From: a virus
DNA: 64,000 bases
Virus record (IMG/VR): IMGVR_UViG_3300024509_000007
Location: 124,001 to 188,000 of that record
Direction: 5' to 3' (one strand)
The translations under genes and the position numbers were made by a program. Shown here in pieces: positions 1 through 48,581 of the stretch. The notes below the pieces were generated by a model. It saw only the letters and a list, made by a program, of their open reading frames with translations. It ran no database searches and had not been told where the DNA came from. Every line of letters begins with the position of its first letter. Positions within the stretch are counted from its first letter, which is position 1.

Positions 1-75
1 CTGACACTAGATTTAGATCAAGACCCATTAAAATATACTGGACAAAATAATGGCAAAAATATTTTCATTAACTGA
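1..75 (+). CDS. 3' end of a gene entering from the left edge (partial)
   Basis: An open frame enters at base 1 and stops with TGA at 73-75, giving a short hydrophilic tail rich in D, L, N and K. It overlaps the next gene by 26 bases. A second open frame stops with TAA at 48-50 in a TAATG overlap with the next start, but its Arg-rich composition fits this AT-rich genome less well. Too little is visible for a function; by position it would be another head or neck gene. Confidence 0.4.
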   Translation: MTLDLDQDPLKYTGQNNGKNIFIN

Positions 76-571
76 TGATATTAAACAAATAGCGGAATTC
101 GCCATAGATGATCTTATAGATCAACTTGGAAAAACTTGTAGACTTATATATCCACCTATTGCTTCTCCTTGCGTAAACTGTCTATTCGACCCAATAGGAA
201 ATAAATCTTCCAATACATGGACTAATGGTGGCCCAATACCGTTTGAAAATGGATCTACATGTCCAATGTGTGATGGCAGCGGTTTGCATTTTAATTCAAT
301 GACTAAGGATATAAAAGTTTTAGTAGCTAACTCTCCTAAAGATTTTTTTCAAAAACTTCCAGCACATATTCAATTGCCAGACGGAAGTATACAAACAAAA
401 GGCTACATGAAAGATCTTCCTGATGTTTTGCAAACAAGAAAGATGGTCTTTCAGTTAGATATTGAAGGCTTAATTAGATATACATATGAACTTTTGGGCG
501 AACCTATAGATCAAGGTAATATAGTGCAAGGCAAATACTGGGTTGCTAACTGGACAAGAGTTGGTGCTTAG
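50..571 (+). CDS. Small zinc-knuckle-like protein, probable head-tail connector region
   Basis: 173 residues. The N-terminal third is helical; residues 42-80 carry two Cys pairs (CVNC and CPMC, the second followed by DGSG) with the look of a treble-clef or rubredoxin-like metal knuckle. The rest is mixed alpha/beta with no motif I recognise. The ATG sits in a TAATG context and the gene is followed after two bases by the next one, so it is translated within the structural operon. Position two genes upstream of tail-tube-type genes suggests a neck, adaptor or tail-completion role, but that is inferred from order only. Confidence 0.55.
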   Translation: MAKIFSLTDDIKQIAEFAIDDLIDQLGKTCRLIYPPIASPCVNCLFDPIGNKSSNTWTNGGPIPFENGSTCPMCDGSGLHFNSMTKDIKVLVANSPKDFFQKLPAHIQLPDGSIQTKGYMKDLPDVLQTRKMVFQLDIEGLIRYTYELLGEPIDQGNIVQGKYWVANWTRVGA

Positions 572-573
572 TT

Positions 574-1275
574 ATGGAATATAAATGGTCTATATCATTA
601 GACGGCAAAGAACTTGAAAAAGGATTAAAAGAAGAACTTAGAAAAATCACATCTAAGTATATAAGTGATTTAATTAAAAGAATAAGACCTTCTATAGTTA
701 GCATAATAGATTATTACATTAAAACTGCTCCAGAAGCTGAATCTTTAACTGATCTTAGGGGGCGATTAAGATTAGATCTTGGTGTCGAAAACCCAGAAAG
801 TATTATTCCTACTATAGCCAGTTATATAACTAGTAAAATTAACTTTGTTAAAAAAGATGCTACTGCAAATTCTTTGGGCGGAATGGCACTTTATTTATTA
901 CGCAGAGAAGGTATACAAGGAGTAGCAGATCATCCATTGGGAAGTTATGAGTCTAAAGCAGGAACAATACCTTGGTTGAGGTGGTTATTATTAGAAGGTT
1001 CTGGCATACTTATACAGAATTATGAAGTTAGATATTATAACTCTATACAGAAAAACTCACGAAGTAGATTTGCCCTTATGGTTCAACCGACAACTATAGC
1101 AGCTAGAGTTAAATATTCAAAATTTTACGATGGCGGATACTTTAAAGGTGTAGATGGTTTTAATATTAGCCCAGAGTTTAGCGGAACAGAAGAAGATAAT
1201 TGGATAACTAGGTCTTTTGATCGGGCTATACCTCAGATAAATGAAATTATTAATAGAGAGGGTAGATTTTCATGA
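574..1275 (+). CDS. Putative neck or tail-completion protein
   Basis: 233 residues. A charged helical N-terminus (about 1-60) is followed by a segment with a WLRWLLLEGSG stretch near residues 136-146 and a short SRFALMV strand further on. Small phage proteins between capsid and tail genes often have this type of helical start followed by a beta domain, for example neck and tail-terminator proteins. No catalytic motif is seen. The stop TGA overlaps the next ATG (ATGA at 1272-1275), so the two are translationally coupled. The assignment rests on gene order, not on a recognised family. Confidence 0.5.
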   Translation: MEYKWSISLDGKELEKGLKEELRKITSKYISDLIKRIRPSIVSIIDYYIKTAPEAESLTDLRGRLRLDLGVENPESIIPTIASYITSKINFVKKDATANSLGGMALYLLRREGIQGVADHPLGSYESKAGTIPWLRWLLLEGSGILIQNYEVRYYNSIQKNSRSRFALMVQPTTIAARVKYSKFYDGGYFKGVDGFNISPEFSGTEEDNWITRSFDRAIPQINEIINREGRFS

Positions 1276-8700: not shown

Positions 8701-11700
8701 ACCAACTGGAGAACAGGTTTATAGATTTTTACCAGCAGAAAAAGCCCCTCTTAATGTTGGAGAAGGCAGAAGAGGTTCTGAGTCCTTAGCCAATATTTTA
8801 AGCACAAGAACAGAAGAAAGATTGGGCAAAATTGCTCCATCAAGAGAAGCACAACAAGCAATAGGTACATATACACAACAAAGACTTTTGACAGAAGAAG
8901 AAAATAAGTTTAAACAACAGGCCGTATTAGCCATAGCCAATCAACTTAAAATTATAACTGGCATTAATGATAAAGAAATTTTGATAGAAGCTGCTACTCA
9001 AAAATATGCACAAGCAGTTCAACAAAATGCAAATTTCGTAGAAAAACAAGGCCGTGTATTTGGTCTTGAGTCTTTAGAGCAAGATGTTATTCAAAAAATG
9101 AATACATCTGGCAAAAAAGTTTCAGATGATCTTCGTGGTATATCAACAGACTTAACTCAGGGTAAAGGGTTTTTTGGAAGATTTAGAGTTTCATTTAACT
9201 CCGCTGCTGAATCTATTAAAAGTGCTTTTGCCAATTTAAGAGATGAAATTAGAAATGCTGGAGGTGGTTTAAGGGGAACATTTGCAGGTTTTCAAAGATC
9301 TAGTCTCGGAAGAGGCATCATCGGTGCTGCCTCTGTCGCTGCTTCATTTGGTGCTAATTATTTAGAAAATGCAGCTGGAACTGCCGAAGATGTTAGTGCT
9401 GGAAGAACTTCTAGGACAACAAATATTATTGGCTCTGGTATTTCAGCTGGTTTAGGTGCAGCAGCCACAGCAGCAATAGCTGTTAATGTTATACCAGGTC
9501 TTGGTCAATTAGCTTCTGGCTTAATTATAGCCGGTGCTGGAATAGCCAGTTTTATCAGTGCTTCTAAAAAAGCAGCTGCTGAAATTGAAAAATTAAATTT
9601 TCAAAAATCGGCAGACAAAGTTAATGACAGTTTAAGAGATGTGGCTGAAGCAGGAAGATTTACTGCTAGATCAGAAGCAGATTTAATAAGAGTTCTTGCT
9701 GATTTTAAAGTCCTTCAGTCAAGAGCTAGAGAGCAAGCAAAAGCAGAAGGCGGAGATGTAAATAAAATAGTTGCTGACAAATTAAGTGAAAGATTTGGTG
9801 CTGCATTACAACCACTTACACAAATTTTGTTATCTAGGGTTGAACAAAGAACTGTTGGGGGCGAGTTCAATGCAGAAAAAATATTTGCCGATTTAAAGAA
9901 GGATGTTGCATTTTTTGAAATATTGGGTGCTGCTTCTAGAAAATCTGGAGATGAGTTAAATAAATTTGCTTTTAACTTAGTAAAAGGAAAGATTGAATCA
10001 GATAGATTAGCTGAAGTGCAAAGAAATGCAGTTGCATCAGTAGAAAAATTAGCTTTGTCTTTAGAATTTTTTGGTAATGCCGTCGCTTTATCAGTTCAAG
10101 ACTTTGAAAATATGAGCAGGGCCACAACAAATTTTGTTGATGCTATGGATAGAAGATCTGAATTTAGAGCACCTGTTATTTCAGAAAGATTAAAAATTGG
10201 AACTCCAGGAAATTTATTTGGATCAGCTTTAGATCAAACTTTTGGAATATTGGGAGATGCTGGAAAAGAACAAAAAAATAATGCTTTAAATCTAAATAAG
10301 TTATACACAGCACTTCCAGCTGCATTGCAAGTAGCTAGAGATAAAGATTTTGGCACAATAGCTGGCGAAGGAATGTTTAAAGAACTACAGGCAATATTAA
10401 AAGAACAAAAAATAGATCTTAAAGCACCAGAGTTTTCAGGATTTGCAGCTAATATAGAAGATTTATTAGAAAAAAGTAGACAATCACTAACACGACAAAG
10501 CAAAGATTTTGATCCTTTTGCATTAACTAAAAAAGCTTTAGATCAGTACGCTAATCAATTTAATCAAACAAATCAGCAATTAGCCAATGCTGTTAATTCT
10601 GTTGGTCAAGAATACATCAACGGTTTAAAAAGAATATCCGATGAACAAAATAGATATTTGAATGAATTAGTGGTTTTAAATGAAAAATCTTTAAATGTTA
10701 AAAAGATAGAAGCTGAAATACAATCAGCACAAACAGGAAGACCTATTAGCGATTTTCTAAAAACTGAAGATATTAATCAGCCTTTATTGATTAGACAAAG
10801 ACAACTTTTAGAAAATACCAATGTTAATAAGGCAGATATATTAGATCCACAGGCAATTTTCAAAGATTTAATGGTTGCCAGAGATGAATTGAAAAAGTCT
10901 GACGAAGAATTAAAAGGTAGTTTTACTGATTTGGCAAATGCTGATGAAAACGCTAGAAAAAAAGCACAGGAATTAGCTTTAGCCAATCAAAATATCAGAG
11001 ATAGAATTTCTAATTTATCTGATGCTTTAAAGAATCTAAGAGATGAAACAATTTCTATGACAGAGGCACAAGGAAGGTTAGCCGATGCAGAGCAGCAAAG
11101 AGAGGCTAAGTTAAGTGCTGCAAGATCTATGTTTACTATGGACAAGAGACAGCTTAAGGAACTAGAGCGTGGAAGAGGCATAGCACAAGATGTTGCTGCT
11201 GGTGCTGATATATCTGGATTGAGTTTAAAAAGAAGAAAAGAGTTTGTTCAATTTACAGAAACATTTAAAAATGTAAGACTTCCAGAGTTTGGAGGAAAGA
11301 CAGGCGAACAAATTCAAAATTTGGCTTTAAAAAGAGCTTATCCACAACTAAACATTCAAACAGAAGAAGAAAAGTCAAATCAAGCAAGAGCCGATATGCT
11401 TGCTATAGCCAAAAGACAAGAAGAGGCAGCTAAGTTATATTCTGACGCAATCAAAAATGGTCAAGATTCTACGAAAAGGATGCAGGAGATAGCTGATAAA
11501 TTTATTAAAGATTTAAAAGAAACATTTTCTGTAGAACAAAGAAAGCCATTAGAAGCACAAAGAGCTTCGCTAGAAAATCAAATTGGTATTATAGCAGGAA
11601 AAGACAAAGGAAAAGATTTTGCAGATATTCGAGCCGGAGAAAATTTAACAGCAGTAAAAAATTTAGAAGATGTATATAAAGAATTAGGTTTATCAAATAA

Positions 11701-14700
11701 AGATGCTTTTAATGTTCAAGCTGATCGCATGAGTGAAACAGAACAGGGATATTTTGCTTCTTTATTTAAAAGAGGGCCAAATCTTCAAACTGCATTAAAT
11801 GCTCAATCTGGAGCGAAAAATTTATTAGAAGTTAAAGAATTTGATAAAGAATCTATAAAAAAAGCTGGTTTTAAAGATGGAGGAGTAATCGATGCCTTAA
11901 ATAAATTACAAAGTTCATTAATATCATCTAAATATGATAAGGATTTGCGAATAACAAATCGTTATTTTGATAAAAATTTATTTGAAAAAGCACTAGCAGA
12001 CATACGAGATTTTGGAAACATACAAAATCGCACAAAAGAAGAATTTAAATCCCCAGAACAAATAAGAGCTTTAGAAAATTTGCAATCTTCTTTGGGGTTA
12101 CAAAATATACCAGATAGAATTAGACAATCTATTTTAAGAGAGGCTAGGAAGTCAGGTTTTGGCGATAGCGATCAAATGGAATCGGTTATTAATGATTTAG
12201 AAAAATTAAAAGATATAAAAATTCCATTTGGAAGAATAGGGCAAGAACTTATTAATTTAGTTAATCAATTAGAAGAAATAAACAAAAAAATTAAAAAAAT
12301 AACCATTCAACCAGAAGAAAAAGCTTTTGGCGGATTAGTAAGTTATTTTTCAGAAGGAGGACTGGCAAAAGGTAAAGATAACATAGCAATGATTGCTAAT
12401 GATGAATTTATTGTTAATGCAAATGCAACTCGTAATAATCTTCCTTTATTAAATGCTATTAATAGCGGAGTTAATTATAAGGCTGAAGGAGGAATACAAT
12501 TAAGACCCAAGAAGGCAGAACGAAACGATCCTAGAATAGATCCGCTTATCAGATCTATGGGTGGCGTTGAAAATGAAGTGGCATTTTATATTGATAAAGG
12601 TAAAAAAACAACTTCTGAAAGTAAAACACCGTATAACATTAAAAGAATAAATCCAGAATTATATAAAGACTTTGAATTTAAAGCTTATTTAAATCGTATA
12701 ACAAGTAAAGATGTTGAATTAAAAAATTCTGTTAGGTATGGATTAATAGATTTTAGAGATGAGTTTGAGAGATCCGTTTCTGATTATTTAAGTGCTAATG
12801 AAGTTTTCAATAATAAAGACTTACTAAACGAATACATGATGGAATTATATGTTCGTGCTTCTGAAAAATTCGATAACTTACCATCAGCTAAAAATATTAA
12901 TGATGTATTTAATGGTCTTAGTAATTCAGAAAAAAATAATATTTTAAAAATAGATTCTTTTGCACCAAGATATCCATTCTCATCTACAAAAGTTAATCTT
13001 AATGATTTAAATAAAGACGCTGCTTATCTTTGGTTAATGAATCGCAGAAGAGTTAATCGGTGGCAAGCAGAAATGATGAATTTAAGTCCAAGAGATAAAA
13101 ATGCATCTGGATTTCTCGCCGACATTCAAGCTGATAATTTTAATAATGATCCAAATAAAGAAGCAAAAGCTTTAATTGAGCAAACTTTAAAATACAGAGA
13201 ATTTTTTAAAAATAAACAGCAACAAGTTTTTAATGAAATTCTTACTGGTACAACTACTTATGCAGAAAATGAAATAGCTTTTCATAATGATCCAAATGCA
13301 ACAAGACAAATGCCATTGATGAATATTCCTTTAGCTAGAGCTAGAGAAAATGAGAATTTAGCTTTTCAAAAAAAGCAATTAAAACCAAAAGTGCAATTTG
13401 CCAGAAAAGATAAAGATGGCAATTTTCACTTAGATGAAAATGCTAGAACTGGAAATACTCCATCTGTCATAAAAAGAGAATACATAGAAAAAGATAAGAA
13501 TGGTAAAATAGTAATAGATGAGAATGGCAAACCAAAAAAATTTACAGGTAGAACTACTAATATAGGCCCGATTTACGATCAAAGTTTTAGTGATTTAGGA
13601 GAACTTACAGCTGTTGAAGTTGACCCAAAAACCGGCAGAATAGAAGAAGTTGATAGAAGTCAATTCGTTATTCCTTCTAGAGCGAAAGTGGAAGCACAAA
13701 GAAAAGAAATTGAAGAGAAGAGAGCTAGGAGAATAGCAGATCAAGAAGCTAGAAATGATGCTGAAAAAATAGTTGAAGATAGAGCTAAATTATCTACGAA
13801 AATTAGTCAAATAGCAAAAGATCCAAGTGCTGATAATTTAAACACTTTGTCTCAAAGATTTCATGTTGAATTAGCAAAAACAATAGCTTCTGTTAAGAAA
13901 AAAGGTTCTGACATAGATGATCCAAGAATTTATGCGGAGTTTGATAAATTTGATCTTAACGAAAAATCTATAGATGAATATAAAAAAGAAGGTATTGATT
14001 CTATAATTCCATCCCTTGGTGTTTTGCGTAAATACTATCAATTTAGAAATGCACTTCGTTTTAAAGATCCAAATGATCCATTAACATCTTTTCAGGGTAG
14101 AGATAAATTAGCTTCTGAATTAACTGCTGAAGCTACTAATTTAATAGCGATGAGAGTTTTAAACAAGGCTGAATTAGCTAAACCGGAAGCTGTTAAAAAA
14201 GATGGGGCTATGCCAGTTGGAGAAGAGTTAGTATCAAAAGAATTAGAAAAACTTATAAGAAATTATAGGCAGTATTATTCTTTTAGTGATGCTTTATCAA
14301 AAGGTGAAGATCCACTTAAAAAGGGTTTTAAAAACACTGACTATACAATAAATGATTATGAATTAAAAAATCTTCGTAATGATTTGCCTATTCCATTTTC
14401 TCAAATAGGTCTAAATGACTTTATGAGCGATAATGGTTTAGACGAAAATAATCCAGAATATATAAGACTTACAAAGTTAAAAGATAAGTTATTCCCATAC
14501 TATGAAAAGTCTTATAAACTAGTTGGTGATTATTCAAATATTTATAAACATGCAGATAAGGTTAGTTATGCTCGTCCTTATTTTGATGCAACTAAAAAGG
14601 ATGCAGATGAATTAATTTCACAAATGAATTCTGAAATTAATAATTTTATTAGATCTGAAGTAGTAAAGAATTTTAGAAAAAATCAAGCAAATGCTGCACA

Positions 14701-38589: not shown

Positions 38590-40145
38590 TTAGAAACTCT
38601 CTTTTCTTCCCAATGATTTATAGATTTTCTTATATTATTTAAAGTTGTAATTATGCTTTCTCTGGTAGTTTCAGTTCTATTTTTTTCAAATTTATTAAAC
38701 AGTCTTTTTTTGAAAGATCCTTTTACTTGATAAATATTTTTGTTTTTTATTTTAATAATTTTTTCAAATGCTTTTTCTAAAAACTCGCCGTCATTTAAAT
38801 TTGTATAATCAAATTTTTCTTCATTAAGAATAATCTGTTCTGAATTCCAAGATTTAGCAGATTTTAATGAAAATATAGCATTGATCCAAGTATTCGCAGA
38901 AACATTATAGTCATATGATTCTCTGGCCAAAGAAGCTATTTCGTATTTTTTATTTTCTCTAATAAATTCTGGAGTTAATATTAGTTCCTTAAGCTTATTG
39001 ATTAAATCGTTTTTATCTGGATTTGCAATTCCTCTATGAGTTTCGGATTCTATCTGAAGCGAAAAATTAATTGGAGTAGCTAATATTGTTTCTGGCATAT
39101 CTTGCATAGCAGAATAATTAACTGAAAATACTGGAACTCCACAATAAGCAGCTTCAACTTGTGGCATTCCAAAACCTTCGCATATTGAATATTGAACTAA
39201 ACAATCAAATATTCCATAAATTTTTGCCATCTGTTCTTTTGAAACACCATTTTTTGTTCCTGCTGTAAAACAACTTTGATTTCTACATTGAATGCAGTAA
39301 ATGCAGTTTCCTTTCCACACAGATGGAAAATTGCAACCACAACTATCACATGTGTATGTAAATAAAATTTTATTAGATACTCCAGACTCTATTAATAATC
39401 TTGGTATATCCCATCCAAGATCTGGATATGAAGTATGTAAGTATAAAAATGTTTTTGAAGAAACTTCTATTGGCAATAAACTTATCAGTTTAGCAAATGA
39501 GAATATCAAATCTGGGAAAAGTTTTCTTTTTTGATTTCTCATTACAGAGCCAATAATAAATGCATTTTCTGGTATGCCAAATTCAACTTTTAACTGTTTT
39601 TTATCTTCTAAAGGAACAAAACAATTATCTGCTGAAGGTGGTGCTATAGCATTAACATTTATATTTGGATAACTTGACAACAGGTTTTTGGCCCATTTTG
39701 AATATGTTAAAATATAGTCTGCACAAGAATATAAAGAAATCCATTCTTTTGTTTGTCCAACTCCATCTACTGGAGGCATATATATCCAGTTATAGTATGA
39801 TCTCAATGGAGAATTTGATATAAAAGAATCCATCCAAGGATCACGGAAAGATATTACTGTATCTGGCTTAAAATCAAGAAGAACATTTTCAAAAACATAT
39901 TTTCCAAATGAATTTTCATGATCTGATATAAAATCTTTTAATTGTTCATCTGCTAAATTAGCTGGAACAGCTGGATATATTTTCCAAGGTATAGATTGAT
40001 CAATAGAATCTGTATAACTAGAAAGTTCTGCTAATTCAAATTGATCAGTTTTTAAAAGTCTATAAAAAATCTCCTTGCCATAGACAGAATATCCTGTTGA
40101 TAAGGATGTGCTATCATTGACAAGGAGTAATTTATGTTTTTTCAT
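38586..40145 (-). CDS. GT4-type glycosyltransferase with inserted zinc ribbon
   Basis: 519 residues. N-domain: KLLLVNDSTSLSTGYSVYGK. C-domain: FIIGSVMRNQKRKLFPDLI and CEGFGMPQVEAAYCGVPVF with EX7E (E323, E331). Between them, residues 266-292 carry seven Cys (266, 269, 271, 281, 284, 287, 292), forming a zinc ribbon not normally part of GT4 enzymes. A basic C-terminal tail follows (about 440-519). It might bind nucleic acid or a partner protein. First gene of the glycan block, separated from ssb by one base. Confidence 0.82.
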   Translation of the reverse strand: MKKHKLLLVNDSTSLSTGYSVYGKEIFYRLLKTDQFELAELSSYTDSIDQSIPWKIYPAVPANLADEQLKDFISDHENSFGKYVFENVLLDFKPDTVISFRDPWMDSFISNSPLRSYYNWIYMPPVDGVGQTKEWISLYSCADYILTYSKWAKNLLSSYPNINVNAIAPPSADNCFVPLEDKKQLKVEFGIPENAFIIGSVMRNQKRKLFPDLIFSFAKLISLLPIEVSSKTFLYLHTSYPDLGWDIPRLLIESGVSNKILFTYTCDSCGCNFPSVWKGNCIYCIQCRNQSCFTAGTKNGVSKEQMAKIYGIFDCLVQYSICEGFGMPQVEAAYCGVPVFSVNYSAMQDMPETILATPINFSLQIESETHRGIANPDKNDLINKLKELILTPEFIRENKKYEIASLARESYDYNVSANTWINAIFSLKSAKSWNSEQIILNEEKFDYTNLNDGEFLEKAFEKIIKIKNKNIYQVKGSFKKRLFNKFEKNRTETTRESIITTLNNIRKSINHWEEKRVSK

Positions 40146-40146
40146 T

Positions 40147-40533
40147 TTAAACAGGATACCAATTAGTTTCTGCTAAAACATCTTCTTCTTTTTCTTCTCG
40201 TTCTTGACGACTTGTTGGTGCTGGCCAATGGAATCTTGTTACTACAAACTTAATTCTATTCCTTTTAGCTCCAGTTGTTTCATCTTTCCAAGAATCACTC
40301 TTAGCAAATGTCTGTACTAAAATTCTTGAACCTTTAGAAAAATTTTTATTAATTAATTCGGCTGTTTTTTCCCATGCTTCACAATCAATATATGCAGTTC
40401 CCTTTTTATCTCCCTTTTCACGCTTATAAGGAGGATTAACAGCTAATGTAAAATTAACTACCGTTTCTCCATTACTTGTTTGTACAAGCCTTGGATCACG
40501 AACGAAATTACCCAAAAAGATACACTCATTCAT
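40147..40533 (-). CDS. ssb: Single-stranded DNA-binding protein
   Basis: 128 residues. NECIFLGNFVRDPRLVQTSN, ETVVNFTLAV, AYIDCEAWEKTAELI and KGSRILVQTFAKSDSWKD are the OB-fold segments of bacterial-type SSB. The tail is short, acidic in the middle (EREEKEED) and ends in WYPV, not in the DDDIPF tip that recruits host partners. It would coat single strands at the phage replication fork. It precedes the glycan operon and follows the C-terminal polymerase gene by 12 bases. Confidence 0.92.
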   Translation of the reverse strand: MNECIFLGNFVRDPRLVQTSNGETVVNFTLAVNPPYKREKGDKKGTAYIDCEAWEKTAELINKNFSKGSRILVQTFAKSDSWKDETTGAKRNRIKFVVTRFHWPAPTSRQEREEKEEDVLAETNWYPV

Positions 40534-40545
40534 TTAAAAAACTCC

Positions 40546-42171
40546 TTACAGTTGGTTAATATCTTTGAGAACCATAGCATCTGTTTTTCTGTCACGCTCG
40601 ACACGAATTAAAACAGTGTTTCCTACAAAAATTTTGTCTACAAATAGCTCATAAGCATCTGGAAAGATAATCGCATTATCTATTTTACAGCTAGAATCAG
40701 AAACTGTTAATCTAGCCATTTTTCTACCGGGATCTTTTCCTTTTTTAGTAATTATTTCTTTAACATCTAATATTTCAACTGACAATACCATAAATCCAGT
40801 TTTTCCAAAATAAAATTCCTTACATGTTGTATTTGCAGATTGATTATCTGAACCATCGGTTAATGAACAGGACAGAGCTATGCCTAAACTTTCTCTTTCT
40901 GCCCATACTTTCCAAGTGACTGGATCATTATAAGTAGTTGGTGGATTTTCTAACATATTATACAAATCGTTAACTAATGAAACACGATTTTTATTACTGC
41001 AACCACCACCTTCTTTTTTCGGTTTAGCAAGAAGAAGTATACAGTCTTTTATATTTTTATAATCTTTGCAATTTTCTCTAATCCATTCTTTTTCTTTTTG
41101 AGTTAATTGATTCCATGTTTCTAATTCTGCTATTAACTTTTGCCTGTATTCACCAGTCCAATCAAAACCGCCTACTGCTATTATTTTAGATACTGATGTA
41201 GAAGAAATAGAATCAGAACAATTTATTAAAAATTTTATCCAACTATCAATCTTTTCTGACTGAGAGTTAAAGCAGTTAATAAGTTTATTGATTTGTGATG
41301 TACCTATACCTTTAATATCAGATAGGCCAAACCATATAGATTCACCGTCAGTATAAAAATTAGACTTTAACATCCTAATGTCTGGTGGATATACATTTAT
41401 GTTATAAAGTTTTGCATTGTCTATAAGATCTGCAACTTCTTGTGAACTATCAGCTTTGTCTTTTGCGTAATAAAGCCAACTCGTAAAGAAATATACTGGA
41501 AAATGACTTTTTAAATAAGCCGTGTCATATCCTGTATATCCGTACGCTGAACTGTGACTTTTGTTGAACGAATATCTTTGGCTTGCTTGAATCCAACCGA
41601 ATAATTCCTCTGCTTGTTCATCAGAGATAACAGCTGCTTTTTTAGCACCATCAATAAACATTTTTTTGCAATTGGCCATTTCTTGAGTATTCTTCTTGCC
41701 AATTGCTTTTCTTAAAACATCAGCCTCTTGCAGATTAAATCCTGCAACAGCTTGTGCAATTTGCATTGCCTGTTCTTGAAAAACTAAAGCACCATATGTA
41801 GGTTTTAAGATATTATCTACTGACGCATGATAACTTGGAACTTTTTCAAAACCATTTACTCTTTTGCAATAATGCTCCGTCATTGAAACGCCTTCTTCGT
41901 CTAATGCTCGAAGGCAACCTGGCCTTAAAAGTGCTCCAAGAGCAGAAAGATGCTCCATATTTTTGGGTCTTAGTTTTTTAGACCATTGTTTACCAAGATG
42001 GGATTCTAATTGAAAAATGCCTTTTGTGTCACCATTAGCAAAAATTTTCCAAGCTAAATCACAATCTGGTAGATTTTGTAAATCTATTTTTAATTTTGGC
42101 ATCTTGCCGTTTTCAGAATTTTTAAGTATTGGCCATTTACAGCCACAATCAAATTTATAAAAATCTTCCAT
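40546..42171 (-). CDS. dnaE: DNA polymerase III alpha, C-terminal half
   Basis: 541 residues. GDTKGIFQLESHLGKQW and ALLRPG begin the fingers region that in bacterial DnaE follows the third catalytic aspartate; YGALVFQEQAMQIA, FNKSHSSAYG and IWFGLSDIKGIGTSQI (helix-hairpin-helix) follow, then an OB fold (GFMVLSVEILDVKE to the end). None of the catalytic aspartates is here: they are in the gene at 43099. No tau-binding C-terminal domain. The first 20 residues hold a CxC pair. The two halves must assemble for polymerisation. Confidence 0.9.
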   Translation of the reverse strand: MEDFYKFDCGCKWPILKNSENGKMPKLKIDLQNLPDCDLAWKIFANGDTKGIFQLESHLGKQWSKKLRPKNMEHLSALGALLRPGCLRALDEEGVSMTEHYCKRVNGFEKVPSYHASVDNILKPTYGALVFQEQAMQIAQAVAGFNLQEADVLRKAIGKKNTQEMANCKKMFIDGAKKAAVISDEQAEELFGWIQASQRYSFNKSHSSAYGYTGYDTAYLKSHFPVYFFTSWLYYAKDKADSSQEVADLIDNAKLYNINVYPPDIRMLKSNFYTDGESIWFGLSDIKGIGTSQINKLINCFNSQSEKIDSWIKFLINCSDSISSTSVSKIIAVGGFDWTGEYRQKLIAELETWNQLTQKEKEWIRENCKDYKNIKDCILLLAKPKKEGGGCSNKNRVSLVNDLYNMLENPPTTYNDPVTWKVWAERESLGIALSCSLTDGSDNQSANTTCKEFYFGKTGFMVLSVEILDVKEIITKKGKDPGRKMARLTVSDSSCKIDNAIIFPDAYELFVDKIFVGNTVLIRVERDRKTDAMVLKDINQL

Positions 42172-42180
42172 AAATATCCT

Positions 42181-42846
42181 TTAAGCAGAGAAACCCTTAG
42201 TTCTTTCTATGTTATCACTTAATGAGTTTTTAAAATTAACTTTGGCAGCTACTTTTCTATGAAGCTGTATAAAGTTTTTCAATAGCGTTGCTGTTTGCTT
42301 AACATCTACTAAAGCATCATGTGCATTCTCAGTAGACATACCAAAATACTCTCTAAGAGTGTCCATCTTGTGATCACGCAACTCATTTGAATTATCAAAC
42401 CAATAAAAAACAAAATCATCCAAATCAAAAACGCTTCTTTTATTAAATAAGTTTTGTTTTCCATATTTATCACAATCGCCAAATTCTCTAGCTAAACGAT
42501 TAATGATAATCATGTCAAAGTGTCTTATGTTTTTTCCGGCAGCAATAGGTGCAAAAAATGTATTGCCAGGTTTTGGGTTATATTTTTTAATAAAAGATGT
42601 AAAAGATTTCCAAACAATAGATAAATCTGGTGCTTTTTCAAGTTCTTCTATGCTCTTTTTATTAATTTCTAAAGCTTCTTTTTCAAGCTTAGAAAAGTCT
42701 CTTGGCTTAATTAGACTTGTGTATTGCCCTAACTCAGCAAGACTTCTTGGATGCAGTGCCATAGCAGCTACTTGAATAACTTCACAAGTTTCTGGATTGA
42801 CACTACCAGTTTCAAAATCAAAAACTAATATAGTCGAATTATTCAC
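42181..42846 (-). CDS. dnaQ: DEDDh 3'-5' exonuclease (epsilon/DnaQ-like)
   Basis: 221 residues. D10-F-E12-T-G is exo motif I, NIRHFDMIIINRL motif II, and NAHDALVDVKQTATLL motif III with the His-Asp pair, giving a DEDDh set. Proofreading is the likely role, matching a polymerase that has a separate exonuclease. It lies between the two polymerase halves, 9 bases upstream of the C-terminal one. A clamp-binding motif is not obvious. Confidence 0.88.
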   Translation of the reverse strand: MNNSTILVFDFETGSVNPETCEVIQVAAMALHPRSLAELGQYTSLIKPRDFSKLEKEALEINKKSIEELEKAPDLSIVWKSFTSFIKKYNPKPGNTFFAPIAAGKNIRHFDMIIINRLAREFGDCDKYGKQNLFNKRSVFDLDDFVFYWFDNSNELRDHKMDTLREYFGMSTENAHDALVDVKQTATLLKNFIQLHRKVAAKVNFKNSLSDNIERTKGFSA

Positions 42847-42853
42847 AATGTTC

Positions 42854-43102
42854 CTACTTTCTTAATTCATCTACTTCTTTAACTTCAAGTTTCAAACGCC
42901 CAGATTCGTCATATTTTATATCTACATAATTATCCTTACTTTTTGCTGCTTGAATAAACTCAGGTTTTAACAGAACTTTACCGCCAAATTTGAAAACCAA
43001 AGCTTTCATAATATTAATTGATTCTTTTATTATTACATCTTTTGACTCAAGCATTTCTTCCAGTGCTTTGATTTCTTCCAATAAGTCTTCTTTCTTTTTC
43101 AT
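42854..43102 (-). CDS. Small coiled-coil protein between the polymerase halves
   Basis: 82 residues: a Glu/Lys-rich N-terminal helix (about 1-30), a hydrophobic IIKESINIMKALVFKF segment, and a beta-like C-terminus. Starts in an ATGA overlap with the upstream polymerase gene. No family recognised; it could be a linker or accessory subunit joining the polymerase parts or a neutral passenger. Confidence 0.6.
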   Translation of the reverse strand: MKKKEDLLEEIKALEEMLESKDVIIKESINIMKALVFKFGGKVLLKPEFIQAAKSKDNYVDIKYDESGRLKLEVKEVDELRK

Positions 43103-45012
43103 AAATCTTCTCCAGCAAGAAGCTTTTGAACTCCCATAAGTTTGTCCAAAACAGCTACTCCAAGTATATCAAACTTAACAAGTCCAATAGATTCTAAGTC
43201 TGACATTTCAAGACCAGCTATGCTTTCATGAGATGTTTTATCATAAATCATAGGACATATATCTTGTAAATTCTGAGAAGCTATGACTATTCCAGCAGCA
43301 TGTTTGCTTTGAGATCTTTTTGTGCCTTCCATTCTTATGGCTTGAGCAAAAAACTTTGCATATTCGCCTTCAAGTTTGCCATCATCTTTTAATTTGCAAT
43401 AAGGTTCAAGTTCTTTTTGGCAATTTTCTAAAGCCCACTTAATAATTGATGGTTCTTGTCCTTCATCACGCATTTCTTGTAATTCTTCTGATATTTCAGC
43501 TTCATCTGGAATGTGTTTAGTAATTAAATTACTTTCTTCAAAAGAACAAGCTGCGTGTATTCTTAACACATCTTTTAAAGCACCACGACCCTGCATTCTA
43601 GTAAATACAGATATCTGAGAAACTTTATCAGAACCATATTTGTTTTTGATATAAGTTATAATTTCTTCTCTTTTCGATATTGGAAAATCACAATCAATAT
43701 CTGGCAATGATATACGACCTGGTGCATTTCTACCTGAGTTATAAAATCTTTCAAAAAGCAATCCGTTTTCAATTGGATTAATTTCTGTTATTCCTAATAA
43801 ATAACTAACCATACATCCAGCACCGGAACCACGACCTTTTCCAACTAACCAGCCTTGTTGTTTTGCCCAATTACAATAATCATAAACAATTAAAAAATAA
43901 TCTTCTAACCCAGCACCTGTTATAACTTCTAGCTCTTTGGTAACACGATCACCATATTGATTAAATCTTGAATCTTCTTTTTTGAAAGAGAATCTTTTTT
44001 TCCAACCTTCTCTACAAAGCCTCTTAATTTCAGCAGAAGAAGATGTTTCTCCAGCAATTTTTGGAAGCATCGGATTACGCAATAGATTGTAATCTTTGCA
44101 CTTCTCAAATATTTCTAAAGTGGCTTCTAACTCTTCTGGTTGATTTAAAGCAGAAATTTCTTCTACAGACGGAATATGATAATTGTTTGATTTAAAAAAT
44201 CCAGAAAAACCAAAGTCTTCATCGTTGTTTATATGGTTTCTAATTTCCGTTAAAGTTTTCTTCATAGAACAGGCTAATAATACTCTTTGGTCTATAGCAT
44301 CTTCTTTTCTTGCATAATGAGCATCTGGAGTTGCTACAGTTTTAAAACCATGCTTTTTAGCAATATGCCTTAATGCTTTAGATATAATCTTTGTTGCCGG
44401 AATATTTTCAGAATCTATAAGTTGTATTTCTAAGAAAAAATTTTCTTTACCAAATAAATCTGCATATTTATATGCAAGATCAGTTGCTCTTTTTTCCCAA
44501 TCTTTATGAACTAAAGACTTCGCTATTTCGTATGTCTCTGCCCTATAAGCTTCATTTAAATCTGTGAATAGACAGTTTCCAAGATCAGACCCTGGATGCC
44601 CAGAAAAAACTATAAAATTGCCATTTGCAATTGATGACAATGTTTTTAGATCAAGTCTTGGTTTTCTATAAAAGTTATCAACAGAGTTAGATACCGAACT
44701 CGCTTTGACTAAACTTGACCATCCAGCATCTTTCTTTGCAAGAACACATAAGTGACTGAGTTTTTTATTCTCGTCATTCTTAATAGTTGGGTCTTGTTCG
44801 CAAATATAAAATTCGCAACCAAGAATCGGACTAATAGATTTAGATTTTAATTTCTTATAAAAAGAAATCAAACCAGATAATGTGCCATGATCTGTTAAAG
44901 CACAAGCCTTTAATTCTAGTTCAGATAATCTATCTGCTATTTTTTCAGCAGAAGATAATCCATCGAGCAAAGAATATTGTGAATGTACATGCAAAGGAAT
45001 CCACTTTGACAT
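43099..45012 (-). CDS. dnaE: DNA polymerase III alpha, N-terminal half (PHP and catalytic core)
   Basis: 637 residues. PHP domain: HVH at 8-10, TDHGT at 40-44, GCEFYI, SHLCVLAK and ATPDAHY (228-233), so most metal ligands are kept. Polymerase core: GKGRGSGAG (391-399), PDIDCDF (437-443), HAAGIVI (571-577) and VKFDILG with D615. All three catalytic Asp lie here. It ends shortly after D615, where bacterial DnaE runs on into the fingers (now the gene at 40546). The end is a clean stop codon with no intein motifs, and the two pieces lie in the order expected for one interrupted gene. Confidence 0.92.
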   Translation of the reverse strand: MSKWIPLHVHSQYSLLDGLSSAEKIADRLSELELKACALTDHGTLSGLISFYKKLKSKSISPILGCEFYICEQDPTIKNDENKKLSHLCVLAKKDAGWSSLVKASSVSNSVDNFYRKPRLDLKTLSSIANGNFIVFSGHPGSDLGNCLFTDLNEAYRAETYEIAKSLVHKDWEKRATDLAYKYADLFGKENFFLEIQLIDSENIPATKIISKALRHIAKKHGFKTVATPDAHYARKEDAIDQRVLLACSMKKTLTEIRNHINNDEDFGFSGFFKSNNYHIPSVEEISALNQPEELEATLEIFEKCKDYNLLRNPMLPKIAGETSSSAEIKRLCREGWKKRFSFKKEDSRFNQYGDRVTKELEVITGAGLEDYFLIVYDYCNWAKQQGWLVGKGRGSGAGCMVSYLLGITEINPIENGLLFERFYNSGRNAPGRISLPDIDCDFPISKREEIITYIKNKYGSDKVSQISVFTRMQGRGALKDVLRIHAACSFEESNLITKHIPDEAEISEELQEMRDEGQEPSIIKWALENCQKELEPYCKLKDDGKLEGEYAKFFAQAIRMEGTKRSQSKHAAGIVIASQNLQDICPMIYDKTSHESIAGLEMSDLESIGLVKFDILGVAVLDKLMGVQKLLAGEDL

Positions 45013-45048
45013 TTCATACTTTCTAATAAAACTTCCATAAATAAACTT

Positions 45049-45798
45049 TTACTTTTTCTTTAATTCGCTTAAAAGTTCAGAGATTACAAAGAATGACCAA
45101 TTTTCCCATTGATCAATTCCTTTATTTAAAAAGCCAGTAAACTCCCATCCGGCTTCACTTAACTTATTTTCAATCTGTTCTATGCAGTGGGTTGTAGAAA
45201 CAGTTATTTTGTGAACAATACCAAAATGAACTTTTCCTACATCGTTACTGTCATCATTAATGATGCCTATAATCTTATTCGATTTAATTGCCCCTAAATC
45301 TAAAGAAATTTCTTCTTTTAGTTCTCTTTTAACAGCATTTTCATAAAAATTTTCTGAATTTATAGAATCTTCTTTTTCAATGTGACCGCCAACACCTAAA
45401 GACTTCTTTCCATGTAATCTATTTTCATTTCCGTTTTTATTGCGTGAATATGTAAATGTTTTATTTGCACAAACAATTACGCAATATGGAATGATTTGTT
45501 TATACGATGGGTCTTTTTCTGCTAAATTTCTTGGAATCCATTCAAAATTTTCTGGTTGTAAAATTTCATTTACATAAAGTTCACAATCTTCGCCCTTTAA
45601 TAATCCTTGAAATTTACCCAACGAATCAAGTAAAGATGTTTTAAAAACTAATATTTCTGGACTAGGAGTGTTATCTATTGACTTATCGTTTACGACTACT
45701 TCATTTTTTTCTGTTTCTTTTTCAGATGCAATCTCTACATCTTGTTTTGAAAAAAGACTTAATAATTTATCAAGGCTGTTAATTTTTTCTTCGCTCAT
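45049..45798 (-). CDS. Nudix hydrolase-like protein
   Basis: 249 residues. An N-terminal 60-residue acidic extension is followed by a LGVGGHIEKED segment and ENAVKRELKEEISLDLG. These fit the Nudix box (GX5EX7REUXEEXGU) except for a longer gap and a Ser in place of the Gly. WSFFVISELLSEL ends the fold. Possible roles are removal of damaged nucleotides or hydrolysis of a capped or sugar nucleotide. It lies upstream of the polymerase pair. Confidence 0.65.
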   Translation of the reverse strand: MSEEKINSLDKLLSLFSKQDVEIASEKETEKNEVVVNDKSIDNTPSPEILVFKTSLLDSLGKFQGLLKGEDCELYVNEILQPENFEWIPRNLAEKDPSYKQIIPYCVIVCANKTFTYSRNKNGNENRLHGKKSLGVGGHIEKEDSINSENFYENAVKRELKEEISLDLGAIKSNKIIGIINDDSNDVGKVHFGIVHKITVSTTHCIEQIENKLSEAGWEFTGFLNKGIDQWENWSFFVISELLSELKKK

Positions 45799-45800
45799 GA

Positions 45801-46817
45801 TTACTCCCTATTAGTTTTACCACCACCACTACCATATTGTTTTACAGCAGAAAAATCAGCATACTTAGCATATACTTTTTCAAGACCTAACTCAATGATT
45901 TCTTCGTGTATTTTTCGACAAGTTGATATTCCAGTATTATCAAAATCGTCTTTGTAAAATTTACATAATCTATCGCATTTCCATTTATCCCTACCCATAT
46001 CTAATATTCTAACTGGGGTTTTACATCTTTTTATAGATTCAAACTTTTTTCTAATCATTTCTTCGGTTTGCTCTAAATCTTCTTTATGAAAACATATAGT
46101 GAATGGGCCTCCAGCCTTAACAAAAAAGATTGTAACTATAATAGTTTCTTCGTTTGGATAAACTTTACTTAATGCATAGTGATATAAACGAAGTTGAAAA
46201 TCGTCAAAAAGATCTTCGTATCCTTTTTCTTTTCCTGTTGACCAGTTTTTTCTCTCTCCGGTTTTCCAATCTATATATTCTATTGTTTTTGAATCTATTC
46301 TAGTTATTAAATCCATCGTACCTTTTAATCTTAAATTACCAGTTACGGTTTCTCCATTCATTAAACGAAAATCATATTTAGCCCAAGGTTTATCAACCTC
46401 TATATCAAAATACTTTTCTGGCTCAACTATATTTCTTTTAAGAGGGGAAAACATTCCGTCATTAAATAATAAAGTATCCCACATCCATTTATCGCATTCC
46501 TTATAATCTTTTTCGGTCCATTCAAAAGAAGATTCTTTTAAACTGTAAAATTCAAAAGCTGATTTAATTGCTTTTTCTGGACATATTTGCAAAGTGTCAA
46601 ACTCTAAACTTAATTCATCATCAGAAAAAGTTTTAGTTTTAGTTTGCAAACAAAGTTGTTTATTGGCTAATAGTTCTAAAGCTTTATGAACTATATTACC
46701 CTTAACAGCTTTTTTGTTTGAATCATCTTTAAATCCAAGACAATAAGTCAAAAAGTATTTATGCTGACACCATTCAAATGAGCCAGCTGAAGAAGACCTA
46801 AGATAAGTTATTATCAT
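45801..46817 (-). CDS. Cas4/Dna2-like PD-(D/E)XK nuclease with Fe-S cysteines
   Basis: 338 residues. SFEWCQHKYFLTY (C17), a KGNIVHKALELL motif, GTMDLITRID and IEYIDWKTG form the PD-(D/E)XK core; WKCDRLCKFY and STCRKIH give three further Cys after the nuclease domain, so four Cys bracket it, as in AddB, Cas4 and Dna2. QLRLYHYALSK is the QxxxY motif. Likely a single-strand exonuclease used in replication or recombination. I found no helicase domain. Overlaps the dNMP kinase gene by four bases. Confidence 0.82.
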   Translation of the reverse strand: MIITYLRSSSAGSFEWCQHKYFLTYCLGFKDDSNKKAVKGNIVHKALELLANKQLCLQTKTKTFSDDELSLEFDTLQICPEKAIKSAFEFYSLKESSFEWTEKDYKECDKWMWDTLLFNDGMFSPLKRNIVEPEKYFDIEVDKPWAKYDFRLMNGETVTGNLRLKGTMDLITRIDSKTIEYIDWKTGERKNWSTGKEKGYEDLFDDFQLRLYHYALSKVYPNEETIIVTIFFVKAGGPFTICFHKEDLEQTEEMIRKKFESIKRCKTPVRILDMGRDKWKCDRLCKFYKDDFDNTGISTCRKIHEEIIELGLEKVYAKYADFSAVKQYGSGGGKTNRE

Positions 46818-47476
46818 TTAAACCAACCTTTTTTGCTTAAAAATTTATTAAGCAATGCAAGTTCTTTTTCTACACTCAACTTTGAATTGTCTATAACTAA
46901 ATCAAATTCATTGAATGTATCTAAGACTTTTTCTGAAGAATGGTTATCTTCTGATATTTCTCTTTTTAATCTAACTACTATGCCACCGTTTTGTTGAATA
47001 GATTTAACTTCGTTTTCAAATCTAACATCTGGTATAATAAAAAAATCTTTCTTAGATGAATTTATTTTATTAAATACAGATTGTATATGAACTTGATCTT
47101 TAATTTTTCTGCAAACTTCTGTTCCAAAAAATTGCAAAAATTCTCTAGCTGACATTTCGGAATCTTCTCTTGTAAAGAGATTTAATTCTTCTGGATAAAT
47201 TCCACTTTTTTCTAGCTTAAAATACATATCTTTAGCAATAAATCCCGGCATATCAGACCATTTATATGCAGTTTTTTTGTTTTTATCCTCTTCTGATCCA
47301 TAGATATTTTGTTTTTTTATGCTAAATAAATTACAACATGTTTCTTTTAAAGCAGAAGCAAAAGGAATAATTTCAACTTTTTTGCCCAAAACAAATTTAC
47401 AATGATTATAAAAAGAATTAGCTAAAGTATCTTTTCCAGCACCTTTTTTGCCACTTATTCCAAGTATTTTACACAT
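46814..47476 (-). CDS. Deoxynucleoside monophosphate kinase
   Basis: 220 residues. P-loop GISGKKGAGKDT at 6-17; FFIIPDVRFENEV and GGIVVRLKRE resemble the segments of T4-type dNMP kinase, with an SAREFLQFFGTEVCR lid-like motif before them. It phosphorylates dNMPs to dNDPs, complementing NrdJ and ThyX in this window. Length is normal for the family. It overlaps both neighbours by a few bases in the replication operon. Confidence 0.8.
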   Translation of the reverse strand: MCKILGISGKKGAGKDTLANSFYNHCKFVLGKKVEIIPFASALKETCCNLFSIKKQNIYGSEEDKNKKTAYKWSDMPGFIAKDMYFKLEKSGIYPEELNLFTREDSEMSAREFLQFFGTEVCRKIKDQVHIQSVFNKINSSKKDFFIIPDVRFENEVKSIQQNGGIVVRLKREISEDNHSSEKVLDTFNEFDLVIDNSKLSVEKELALLNKFLSKKGWFK

Positions 47477-48581
47477 TACAAATATTCCTTAAATCTGATG
47501 TGGTAGATCCAGGGTCTTTGCCTTCATAAATAGGAATAGTAACATTAAAAAATCTACTGAGCAAAGACTTAATCTTTTGTTTAGCATTTATACCAGCTTC
47601 ATCATTATCTAACAACAAGATAATCTTTGTTATATCACATGTTTCTAGGATAATTTGTTGAGAATCCGTTAAAGATATACCAAAGATAGCAACCGCATTT
47701 TCTATACCTTTTTCGTGCAAAGACCAAACATCTCCTGGCCCTTCGCATATAATAAGCGTTTTATTGAACTTAGCTGCGTTCAAAGCATTATGTAAGTTGT
47801 ATAAATACCTTTCTTTTGCAAAACCACTGTTATTTGCCCATTTTGAATATATATATTTAGGATTTTTAGAATTGCATGAAGCCTGATGATATTGATTGCA
47901 TTTATCGCATTTCTCGTAGTTTGATCTGCCGGTAAAACCGACAACATGTATTCCATCTCTATCTATTACAGGAACAATTGATCTATCTTTAAATATGCCA
48001 TCATTATTCTTAGGAACACCTACTGAAAAATGTTCCAATGTTTCTTGTTTATATCCACGACTTAAAAAATATGGAGATGGAATTATCATACTTGAAATTA
48101 CATTATGAAGATTCCAGCCTTTAAAATGCTTCTTTTTCTTTTCAAAAATTTTCATGTCATTACAAAACTTCTTTTTTTCAATATCGCTAAGCTCTGGAAT
48201 ATCTGATTCATTTATTTTTAAAATAGATTGGCAAAAATCATATGTTTTACCAAAACTGTATTTGATATCTTTTGCTTGGCCAGTCCAATTATTTTCTCTG
48301 TTAGATAAAACACCACGAATAAAACCAAATGGAGTTGGTTTAAAAACTTCTTCGCAATGATGTGTGTAACAACACCAATTACCTTTTAATGTGTTTCCAT
48401 CTAAATACATACAAAATGCAGTAGGATTATCTCCGCCATGTATTGGACATGGACCAGAAATATAATTATTAATATTCTTATATTTAACATCAAACATTTC
48501 TAAAAAGACTTGAATATTTTCAAAAATCTTTTCAGATATGAAGTTAATCTTCGTCTGATCCAAAAAAGTCAATTGGTTCAT
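47469..48581 (-). CDS. DNA primase (zinc finger plus TOPRIM)
   Basis: 370 residues. CHC2-type zinc finger at about 45-77 (CPIHGG...FCMY, WCCYTHHCEE). Catalytic TOPRIM: TLIICEGPGDVWSLHEKG, the ISLTDSQ segment and IILLLDNDEAG (DxD). An extra zinc knuckle (CDKCNQYHQASC) sits between the two. It makes RNA primers for the replisome. Smaller than bacterial DnaG and without a helicase domain, so the helicase is the separate gene overlapping it by 38 bases. Confidence 0.88.
   Translation of the reverse strand: MNQLTFLDQTKINFISEKIFENIQVFLEMFDVKYKNINNYISGPCPIHGGDNPTAFCMYLDGNTLKGNWCCYTHHCEEVFKPTPFGFIRGVLSNRENNWTGQAKDIKYSFGKTYDFCQSILKINESDIPELSDIEKKKFCNDMKIFEKKKKHFKGWNLHNVISSMIIPSPYFLSRGYKQETLEHFSVGVPKNNDGIFKDRSIVPVIDRDGIHVVGFTGRSNYEKCDKCNQYHQASCNSKNPKYIYSKWANNSGFAKERYLYNLHNALNAAKFNKTLIICEGPGDVWSLHEKGIENAVAIFGISLTDSQQIILETCDITKIILLLDNDEAGINAKQKIKSLLSRFFNVTIPIYEGKDPGSTTSDLRNICNV

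What the first reader, a model, noticed from the sequence alone, without database searches (positions are those of the whole stretch)
40546..45012. DNA polymerase III alpha split into two genes around an exonuclease
The gene at 43099-45012 ends 22 residues after the third catalytic aspartate (D615 in VKFDILG). The gene at 40546-42171 begins 50 residues before the next conserved DnaE segment (GDTKGIFQLES). Between them lie an 82-residue gene and a DEDDh exonuclease, all co-directional. There is no intein or extein motif at either end, unlike cyanobacterial split DnaE, whose junction is near FNKSHS; that motif is intact here. A functional enzyme must assemble from two separately translated chains, perhaps with the small coiled-coil protein as a linker.
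Basis: partly seen in the sequence, partly recalled or inferred. Interest (0 to 1): 0.8.

Follow-up and report, generated by a model that had tools for sequence, protein, structure and literature searches.

The report
Phage replicase encoded in two halves
This phage and a large set of uncultured relatives encode their DNA-copying enzyme as two separate proteins, cut between the catalytic palm and the fingers, with the proofreading gene lying in the gap; one lineage seems to have stitched the halves back together.

Summary
DnaE-N (637 aa: PHP, palm, thumb, catalytic Asp triad) and DnaE-C (541 aa: fingers, HhH, OB) are separate genes with an 82-aa ORF and an exonuclease between them. Together they align to E. 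coli alpha 3-1073, broken near residue 576, with about 6 model positions in the break. It is not a sequencing error: a second phage (88% identical in DnaE-N) has the same break, and the exonuclease lies between the halves in 72 of 72 non-redundant split loci. Both halves are under purifying selection; no family A or B polymerase was found in 13 records. No intein or intron was detected at the junction. Best explanation: an obligate two-chain replicase. The 82-aa linker idea fails, because the gap ORF is replaced or absent elsewhere. A Cys hairpin at the new N-terminus of DnaE-C is a better, though not universal, docking candidate. One lineage (L063) has the halves fused; trees nest it in the split clade, suggesting re-fusion, but AU tests give p 0.054 and 0.098. 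The sister phage's DnaE-C is broken again at FNK|SHS by a split intein plus endonuclease gene. Other forms of split phage Pol III alpha are in print; this break was not found there. Nothing was tested biochemically.

The parts
43099..45012 (-). DnaE-N (637 aa): PHP, palm and thumb of Pol III alpha, catalytic D438, D440, D615
   Evidence: AlphaFold2 model pLDDT 89.6 aligned to E. coli alpha 3..577
42854..43102 (-). 82-aa ORF of unknown function; its start overlaps the DnaE-N stop codon; not conserved in the clade
42181..42846 (-). proofreading-type exonuclease (RNase_T, epsilon-like), GTG start
   Evidence: lies between N and C in 72 of 72 split loci
40546..42171 (-). DnaE-C (541 aa): fingers, HhH, OB domain of Pol III alpha; the last part of alpha (beyond E. 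coli 1073) is not matched
   Evidence: AlphaFold2 model pLDDT 90.4 aligned to E. coli alpha 576..1073
42100..42171 (-). extra N-terminal segment of DnaE-C (residues 1-24) with the CGC hairpin found in most split members; candidate docking element (inferred)
41557..41562 (-). FNK|SHS position: uninterrupted here; site of the split intein plus endonuclease in the sister phage (L012, L013, L014 and the record's second copy)
40147..40533 (-). SSB gene next in the cluster
45801..48581 (-). upstream replication cluster: PD-(D/E)XK nuclease, dNMP kinase, DnaG-like primase

Best explanation
The phage's replicative polymerase is a bacterial-type (C-family) Pol III alpha made as two polypeptides from one gene cluster. 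DnaE-N brings the PHP domain and the catalytic palm and thumb. DnaE-C brings the fingers, the helix-hairpin-helix region and the OB domain. The chains associate without covalent joining into one active site, cut in the linker between palm and fingers. The neighbouring exonuclease is the proofreading subunit and probably binds the PHP side of DnaE-N, as epsilon binds alpha in E. coli (recalled). Shown by sequence: the split, its sharing by a phage clade, purifying selection on both halves, no detected intron or intein at the junction, and no family A or B polymerase in the records tested. Inferred: physical assembly, activity, the role of the N-terminal Cys hairpin of DnaE-C as a docking element, and recruitment of the exonuclease.
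For: Both halves tile alpha with about 6 model positions in the break. N ends at this point in 59 of 82 first-round loci (C on the same locus in 55, exonuclease in 58), 12 run off the contig, 10 are intact (9 of them remote, 23-30%), 1 has no N match. N and C are on separate ORFs in 80 of 80 loci returned by the DnaE-C profile scan, which include contigs already seen, and in 72 non-redundant loci. The exonuclease lies between N and C in 72 of 72. The Asp triad, GRGS and fingers QEQ/RK.KK residues are kept in 71 or 72 of 72; the D438/D440 exception is L069, whose second fragment carries PDIDVD. A/B dN/dS is 0.079 for N, 0.046 and 0.083 for the two parts of C. N and C identities correlate (r 0.94 over 2556 pairs), much of which shared ancestry alone would give. 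PF00136 and PF00476: 0 of 13 records. Each gene has its own start codon and a purine-rich stretch upstream, by eye. A fused homologue keeps both parts in one 1144-aa chain matching TIGR00594 1-1021.
Against: No experiment or complex model shows that the halves bind; AlphaFold2 was run on each half alone. The C model aligns to the whole 5fku_A chain with rmsd 8.1 A (3.3 A over 327 residues of 2hnh), plausible for mobile domains but not proof. No beta clamp gene was found (PF00712: 0 of 13) and no clamp-binding motif was tested, so processivity is open. The Cys hairpin is missing in 6 of 72 split loci. The intein C-terminal model missed a plausible C-part in L110, so its silence at the window junction is weak evidence by itself; the N-terminal model hit both cases where it was expected.
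Confidence: 0.86

Rival explanations
1. The two halves are joined after all, by RNA splicing, ribosome hopping or an unrecognised trans-splicing element, into one alpha chain.
For: The sister phage uses a split intein elsewhere in the same protein, and related loci have further breaks by inteins (L110, L216) or a LAGLIDADG-like ORF (L069). The intein C-terminal model is not fully sensitive (missed L110).
Against: No intein N-terminal or C-terminal model match at either window chain end, while the N-terminal model hits both L012-type and L110 inteins; no Rfam intron at E up to 1 in window 40000-46000; the gap holds a conserved exonuclease, the N-to-exonuclease distance ranges from 0 to about 6.1 kb, and DnaE-C has its own start and a conserved new N-terminus.
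Confidence: 0.05
2. The split is a decayed locus: one half is non-functional or serves another role, and replication relies on a host polymerase.
For: Many phages use host Pol III (recalled); no beta clamp gene was found in 13 records.
Against: dN/dS far below 1 in both halves, catalytic residues of both halves kept, N and C travel together, a replication gene cluster surrounds them.
Confidence: 0.05
3. The two halves assemble only with the small gap protein as linker.
For: It lies between the halves and its start overlaps the DnaE-N stop in the window.
Against: Its family is in 9 of 72 split loci, replaced by unrelated ORFs or nothing elsewhere; in L045 and L058 the exonuclease frame begins right after the N stop; relaxed constraint. 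A lineage-specific accessory role is not excluded.
Confidence: 0.04

Closest known systems
Bacterial DnaE (Pol III alpha), e.g. E. coli 2hnh/5fku
   Same: Domain order, catalytic triad, fingers and OB domain; both halves align to it.
   Different: Two chains instead of one; the C-terminal part beyond residue 1073 not matched; exonuclease gene inside the split.
Cyanobacterial split-intein DnaE (recalled; PMC2664965 seen only in a search listing)
   Same: DnaE encoded by two genes.
   Different: There the break is at the FNKSHS region and split inteins weld the halves (recalled); here the shared break is roughly 200 residues upstream, at palm/fingers, and shows no intein. The sister phage's extra break at FNK|SHS resembles the cyanobacterial kind.
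Minimal split Pol III alpha of group 2.2 jumbo phages (Iyer et al. 2021, PMC7824862; passages read)
   Same: Two stand-alone proteins expected to reconstitute one catalytic unit; no intein named in the passages seen.
   Different: That form is described as minimal, in distantly located genes and beside a family B polymerase. Here the enzyme has PHP through OB, lies in one cluster, and no family B polymerase was found. Its exact break point was not compared.
Two-gene DnaE in Microbacterium cluster EF (PMC7302621, passages read) and in Microbacterium Kate, Gordonia BiteSize, Rhodococcus Trina (whether Kate is in cluster EF was not checked)
   Same: DnaE in two adjacent or near-adjacent phage genes.
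   Different: In the three genomes examined the break is after the PHP region (profile positions 237-326), leaving palm and fingers in one chain.
Split DNA polymerase of OM43 phages (PMC10580990, passages read)
   Same: DNA polymerase in two genes with a small ORF between.
   Different: Polymerase family not stated in the passages seen; the authors suggest an intron.
'Fractured genes' with split inteins and endonucleases (Dassa et al. 2009, title seen in a reference list; paper not held) and PolB of phage MIJ3 (PMC6892783, passages read)
   Same: The sister phage's DnaE-C: intein-N, separate endonuclease ORF, intein-C.
   Different: Concerns a second break in the sister phage, not the shared N|C split.

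Membership tests
C-family Pol III alpha (DnaE) | PHP, DNA_pol3_alpha and finger domains, Asp triad | tested here: met
C-family Pol III alpha (DnaE) | single polypeptide | tested here: not met
C-family Pol III alpha (DnaE) | C-terminal tau-binding domain | tested here: inconclusive
   C model aligns up to 5fku_A residue 1073; no separate test made
C-family Pol III alpha (DnaE) | beta-clamp-binding motif | not tested
   only the clamp gene itself was sought (PF00712, 0 of 13)
Split-intein DnaE (cyanobacterial kind) | intein sequences at the ends facing the break | tested here: not met
   no TIGR01445 or TIGR01443 match in window N or C; TIGR01445 hits L012 and L110 inteins, TIGR01443 hits L012 but not L110
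Minimal split Pol III alpha of group 2.2 jumbo phages | minimal form, distant genes, accompanying PolB | tested here: not met
   PHP and OB present, one cluster, PF00136 0 of 13
Fractured gene with split intein (sister phage, FNK|SHS site) | intein N and C blocks on separate ORFs around a free-standing endonuclease | tested here: met
   TIGR01445 34.0 bits (cut-off 24.5), TIGR01443 17.3 (15.6), DUF559 22.8 bits (cut-off 20.6) in the 309-aa ORF, with a sub-threshold Vsr match (21 bits, cut-off 97.85)
Fractured gene with split intein (sister phage, FNK|SHS site) | protein trans-splicing activity | not testable with these tools
   needs expression

The most novel reading that the evidence does not exclude
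A large uncultured phage clade replicates with an obligate two-chain C-family replicase whose palm and fingers are different proteins, clasped in most members by a lineage-specific N-terminal Cys hairpin and served by the proofreading exonuclease encoded in the gap. The split is ancestral to the clade, was reversed by re-fusion in at least one lineage, and in others the same enzyme was fractured again by split inteins, giving a three-gene replicase.
Probability: 0.65. Interest if true: 0.75.

Novelty: new variant of a known kind. Interest (0 to 1): 0.62.

Why it matters
Replicases are expected to keep palm and fingers in one chain. Here a natural experiment suggests that a Pol III alpha can be cut between them and kept that way through deep divergence (pairwise identity of the halves down to 35%). 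It offers a ready-made split polymerase for reconstitution work and a case for asking whether gene fracture can become fixed without an intein. No record of the GenBank phage collection matches either half above 60% identity.

Tried and rejected
Frameshift or assembly error: rejected. Intron at the junction: Rfam at E up to 1 gave one weak, irrelevant miRNA match. Small protein as linker: rejected. Whole record as one genome with a true 72-kb duplication: not excluded, but less likely than a join of two related phages, because 11 of 13 related virus records of 80-201 kb have one copy of each half (10 split, plus fused L063) and both types also occur on separate contigs. A 14th record (G013, a MAG) had two matches on different contigs and was left out of that count.

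Re-fusion of L063: nested with starred support in three DnaE trees and grouped with 11 split loci in the exonuclease tree; its small ORF is of the same family as its neighbours'; its nearest kin are split. Against: the AU test did not reject one clade of all split rows (p 0.054; p 0.098). All trees are 'quick' ones with long outgroup branches. Rows for (44 of 81; 37) were chosen by me, long-branched ones left out; L214 and L218 were asked for but were not in the set, reason not established.

Hairpin as strict requirement: rejected, 6 of 72 split loci lack it. Zinc binding by CGC plus the third Cys: only an idea, since the losses are few and related. Group I intron in L069: no Rfam match at gathering threshold. 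HNH, LAGLIDADG and methyltransferase labels for ORFs in L063, L069, L076 and L216 are by eye; the L063 and L069 ORFs had no NCBIfam match.

Literature: six searches listed no paper on this split; the library lacks most subscription papers. For the phage collection only 60-row listings of 1252-1348 matching records were read and break points were inspected in four records, so a same-break member there is not excluded.

Script faults: coordinates printed for L202-L205 and L206-L224 are wrong (position counter not advanced; id collisions could have lost ORFs); one search gives the right ones. The 163-locus set needed 420 N and 330 C columns, which left out some intact loci (L079, L081, L082 and others).
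Full report
WHAT IS THERE. On the minus strand of the window, in order of transcription: DnaE-N (43099-45012, 637 aa), an 82-aa ORF (42854-43102), an exonuclease (42181-42846, 221 aa, GTG start), DnaE-C (40546-42171, 541 aa) and SSB (40147-40533). Pfam gives PHP and DNA_pol3_alpha for N, finger and HHH_6 for C, RNase_T for the exonuclease, nothing for the small ORF. The TIGR00594 alpha model is matched 1-570 by N and 577-1019 by C. Upstream lie a PD-(D/E)XK nuclease, a dNMP kinase and a DnaG-like primase. The small ORF's start overlaps the stop of DnaE-N and the other spacers are 7, 9 and 12 bases, so the genes look co-expressed (inference).

WHERE THE BREAK FALLS. AlphaFold2 models of each half, made with alignments of window and locus proteins, have mean pLDDT 89.6 (N) and 90.4 (C). 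VIA-align places N on E. coli alpha 3..577 (5fku_A, Z 34.0, rmsd 3.3 over 566; 2hnh 3..576, Z 37.9) and C on 576..1073 (5fku_A, Z 19.1, rmsd 8.1 over 457; 2hnh 574..910, Z 15.6, rmsd 3.3 over 327). So the halves tile alpha with the cut near residue 576, after the third catalytic Asp and before the fingers (domain names recalled). The last part of alpha, where tau binds (recalled), is not matched.

NOT AN ERROR. The window is part of a 221,321-base virus record with two DNA_pol3_alpha matches. Bases 1-72 kb are colinear with 147-221 kb, mostly at 68-86% identity. The second copy has N, an 81-aa ORF, exonuclease and C in the same order, and N ends at the same place (637 aa, 88% identical). Of 13 related virus records, 11 have one copy of each half; this record and a 206-kb one have two. 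The two records most likely join two related phages, here called A (window) and B.

HOW WIDESPREAD. Scans of viral contigs with N and C gave 82 loci on 81 contigs after removing repeats: 59 have N ending at this point (C seen on 55, exonuclease on 58), 12 run off the contig, 10 have one intact ORF, 1 had no N match. Nine of the 10 intact are remote (23-30%); one, L063, is close (46%). A scan of genome contigs gave 9 loci, 6 split and 3 intact at 32-34%; their bacterial or archaeal labels are bins and may be phage contigs (inference). Of 163 loci passing coverage limits, contigs repeated, 154 are split and 9 intact; at 90% identity these reduce to 72 split and 9 intact. The exonuclease lies between N and C in 72 of 72. 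A later scan with L063 gave 19 loci: L063's own contig, 15 with N ended (13 of them showing C on a separate ORF) and 3 intact at 29-30%. In the GenBank phage collection no match to either half exceeds 60% identity.

FUNCTION. D615 is kept in 72 of 72, D438 and D440 in 71 (the exception, L069, is broken just there); fingers residues QEQ and RK..KK in 71-72. A/B dN/dS (Nei-Gojobori) is 0.079 for N, 0.046 and 0.083 for the two parts of C, 0.059 for the exonuclease, 0.29 for the small ORF. N and C identities among the 72 correlate at r = 0.94, though shared ancestry alone gives much of that. Family A and B polymerases and a beta clamp were not found in 13 records; records may be incomplete. The simplest reading is that the two chains form the replicase.

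THE NEW N-TERMINUS. DnaE-C starts with about 24 residues that are absent from the four intact homologues printed. They carry CGC between two predicted strands (4-6 and 12-17). CGC occurs in 65 of 72 split loci, CDC in one, and 6 lack it; all 65 with CGC also have a third Cys before the conserved Trp, and 4 of the 6 without lack that too. This is a better docking candidate than the gap ORF, but since some split members lack it, it is not obligatory.

THE LINKER IDEA. The distance between N and exonuclease frame ranges from 0 to about 6.1 kb. Gap ORFs fall into families with no BLAST link, seen in 29, 12 and 9 loci, the last being that of the window, and 9 loci have no ATG-started ORF of 40 aa or more. 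The 82-aa protein cannot be a general linker.

RE-FUSION. L063 encodes a 1144-aa DnaE matching TIGR00594 1-1021 at 725.9 bits. Its order is nuclease, a 162-aa ORF, small ORF, exonuclease, an HNH-like ORF (by eye), DnaE, SSB: the small ORF and exonuclease, which elsewhere sit between N and C, lie upstream. L076 shows the same upstream exonuclease but ends inside N. L063's small ORF matches the 12-locus gap family, and its exonuclease groups with 11 split loci (99*). In DnaE trees L063 is nested in the split clade (in one search sister to split L208 at 98*), and its nearest relatives by scan are split. AU tests do not reject a single clade of all split rows (p 0.054; p 0.098). I lean to one ancient split and a later re-fusion (about 0.8), which would be natural evidence that the halves work as one enzyme. 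The reverse, that L063 keeps the older state, is not excluded.

FURTHER BREAKS. In phage B, DnaE-C is interrupted at RYSFNK|SHSSAYG by about 1.3 kb: an intein N-part (TIGR01445, 34.0 bits, cut-off 24.5), a separate 309-aa ORF with DUF559/Vsr-like endonuclease similarity, and an intein C-part (TIGR01443, 17.3 bits, cut-off 15.6) ending ...AVSN|SHS. So phage B's alpha is in three genes, two of them probably welded by trans-splicing (inference). L110 has an intein N-part in DnaE-N at GRG|S (27.1 bits), broken endonuclease-like ORFs, and a C-part seen by eye that TIGR01443 did not report at E 0.05. L216 has a cis intein in DnaE-C at RPG|C (by eye). L069 has a LAGLIDADG-like ORF (by eye) before the DID motif, with no Rfam intron match. 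The clade's replicase is a repeated target of mobile elements; whether the shared N|C split began that way is open.

COMPARISON AND NOVELTY. Split phage Pol III alpha is in print in two forms: a minimal one in group 2.2 jumbo phages (PMC7824862, passages) and two DnaE genes in Microbacterium cluster EF (PMC7302621, passages). In three isolates with two DnaE genes (Kate, BiteSize, Trina) the cut is after PHP. Full-length DnaE cut at palm/fingers without intein, with the exonuclease in the gap, was not found in six paper searches. I file it as a new variant of a known kind.

Noticed in passing
record of the window, bases 1-72 kb versus 147-221 kb (L003-L008, window): The virus record overlaps itself colinearly, mostly at 68-86% identity; it and a 206-kb record (L010/L013) probably join two related phages A and B.
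   Followed up: partly
L012:9792-12787: Sister phage DnaE-C broken at FNK|SHS by a split intein with a free-standing DUF559/Vsr-like endonuclease ORF.
   Followed up: yes
L110:3178-6025: DnaE-N interrupted at GRG|S by a split intein (N-part by HMM, C-part by eye) with broken endonuclease-like ORFs; the neighbouring PD-(D/E)XK gene (L110:1139-3190) also looks, by eye, to carry an intein, though NCBIfam reported none.
   Followed up: partly
L216:8554-10908: Cis intein with HNH-like residues (by eye) in DnaE-C at RPG|CLKS.
   Followed up: no
L069:9190-10140: LAGLIDADG-like ORF (by eye) interrupts DnaE-N just before the catalytic DID motif; no Rfam intron match.
   Followed up: partly
L063:6961-8034: HNH-like ORF (by eye) overlaps the start of the fused DnaE; in L076 the same place holds methyltransferase-like ORFs (by eye).
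   Followed up: no
L138 and L139, between DnaE-N and exonuclease: About 6.1 kb of metabolic-looking genes (aldehyde dehydrogenase-, aminotransferase- and dehydrogenase-like by eye) inserted in the replicase cluster.
   Followed up: no
L207-L221: DnaE-N is short (about 520-570 aa) in several kin of L063; in L214 and L218 profile positions about 104-227, in the PHP region, are missing.
   Followed up: no
L176:3148-4930: DnaE-N in two ORFs with the catalytic DID stretch missing; deletion or assembly fault.
   Followed up: no
L078:3708-6080: DnaE-N with an internal stop and an extra segment before the DID motif, ending at the usual break; no DnaE-C or exonuclease found within the locus.
   Followed up: no
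L203, L204, L205: Microbacterium, Gordonia and Rhodococcus phages with DnaE cut after PHP, a different break point.
   Followed up: partly
window 5729-17659: A 3976-aa ORF on the plus strand.
   Followed up: no
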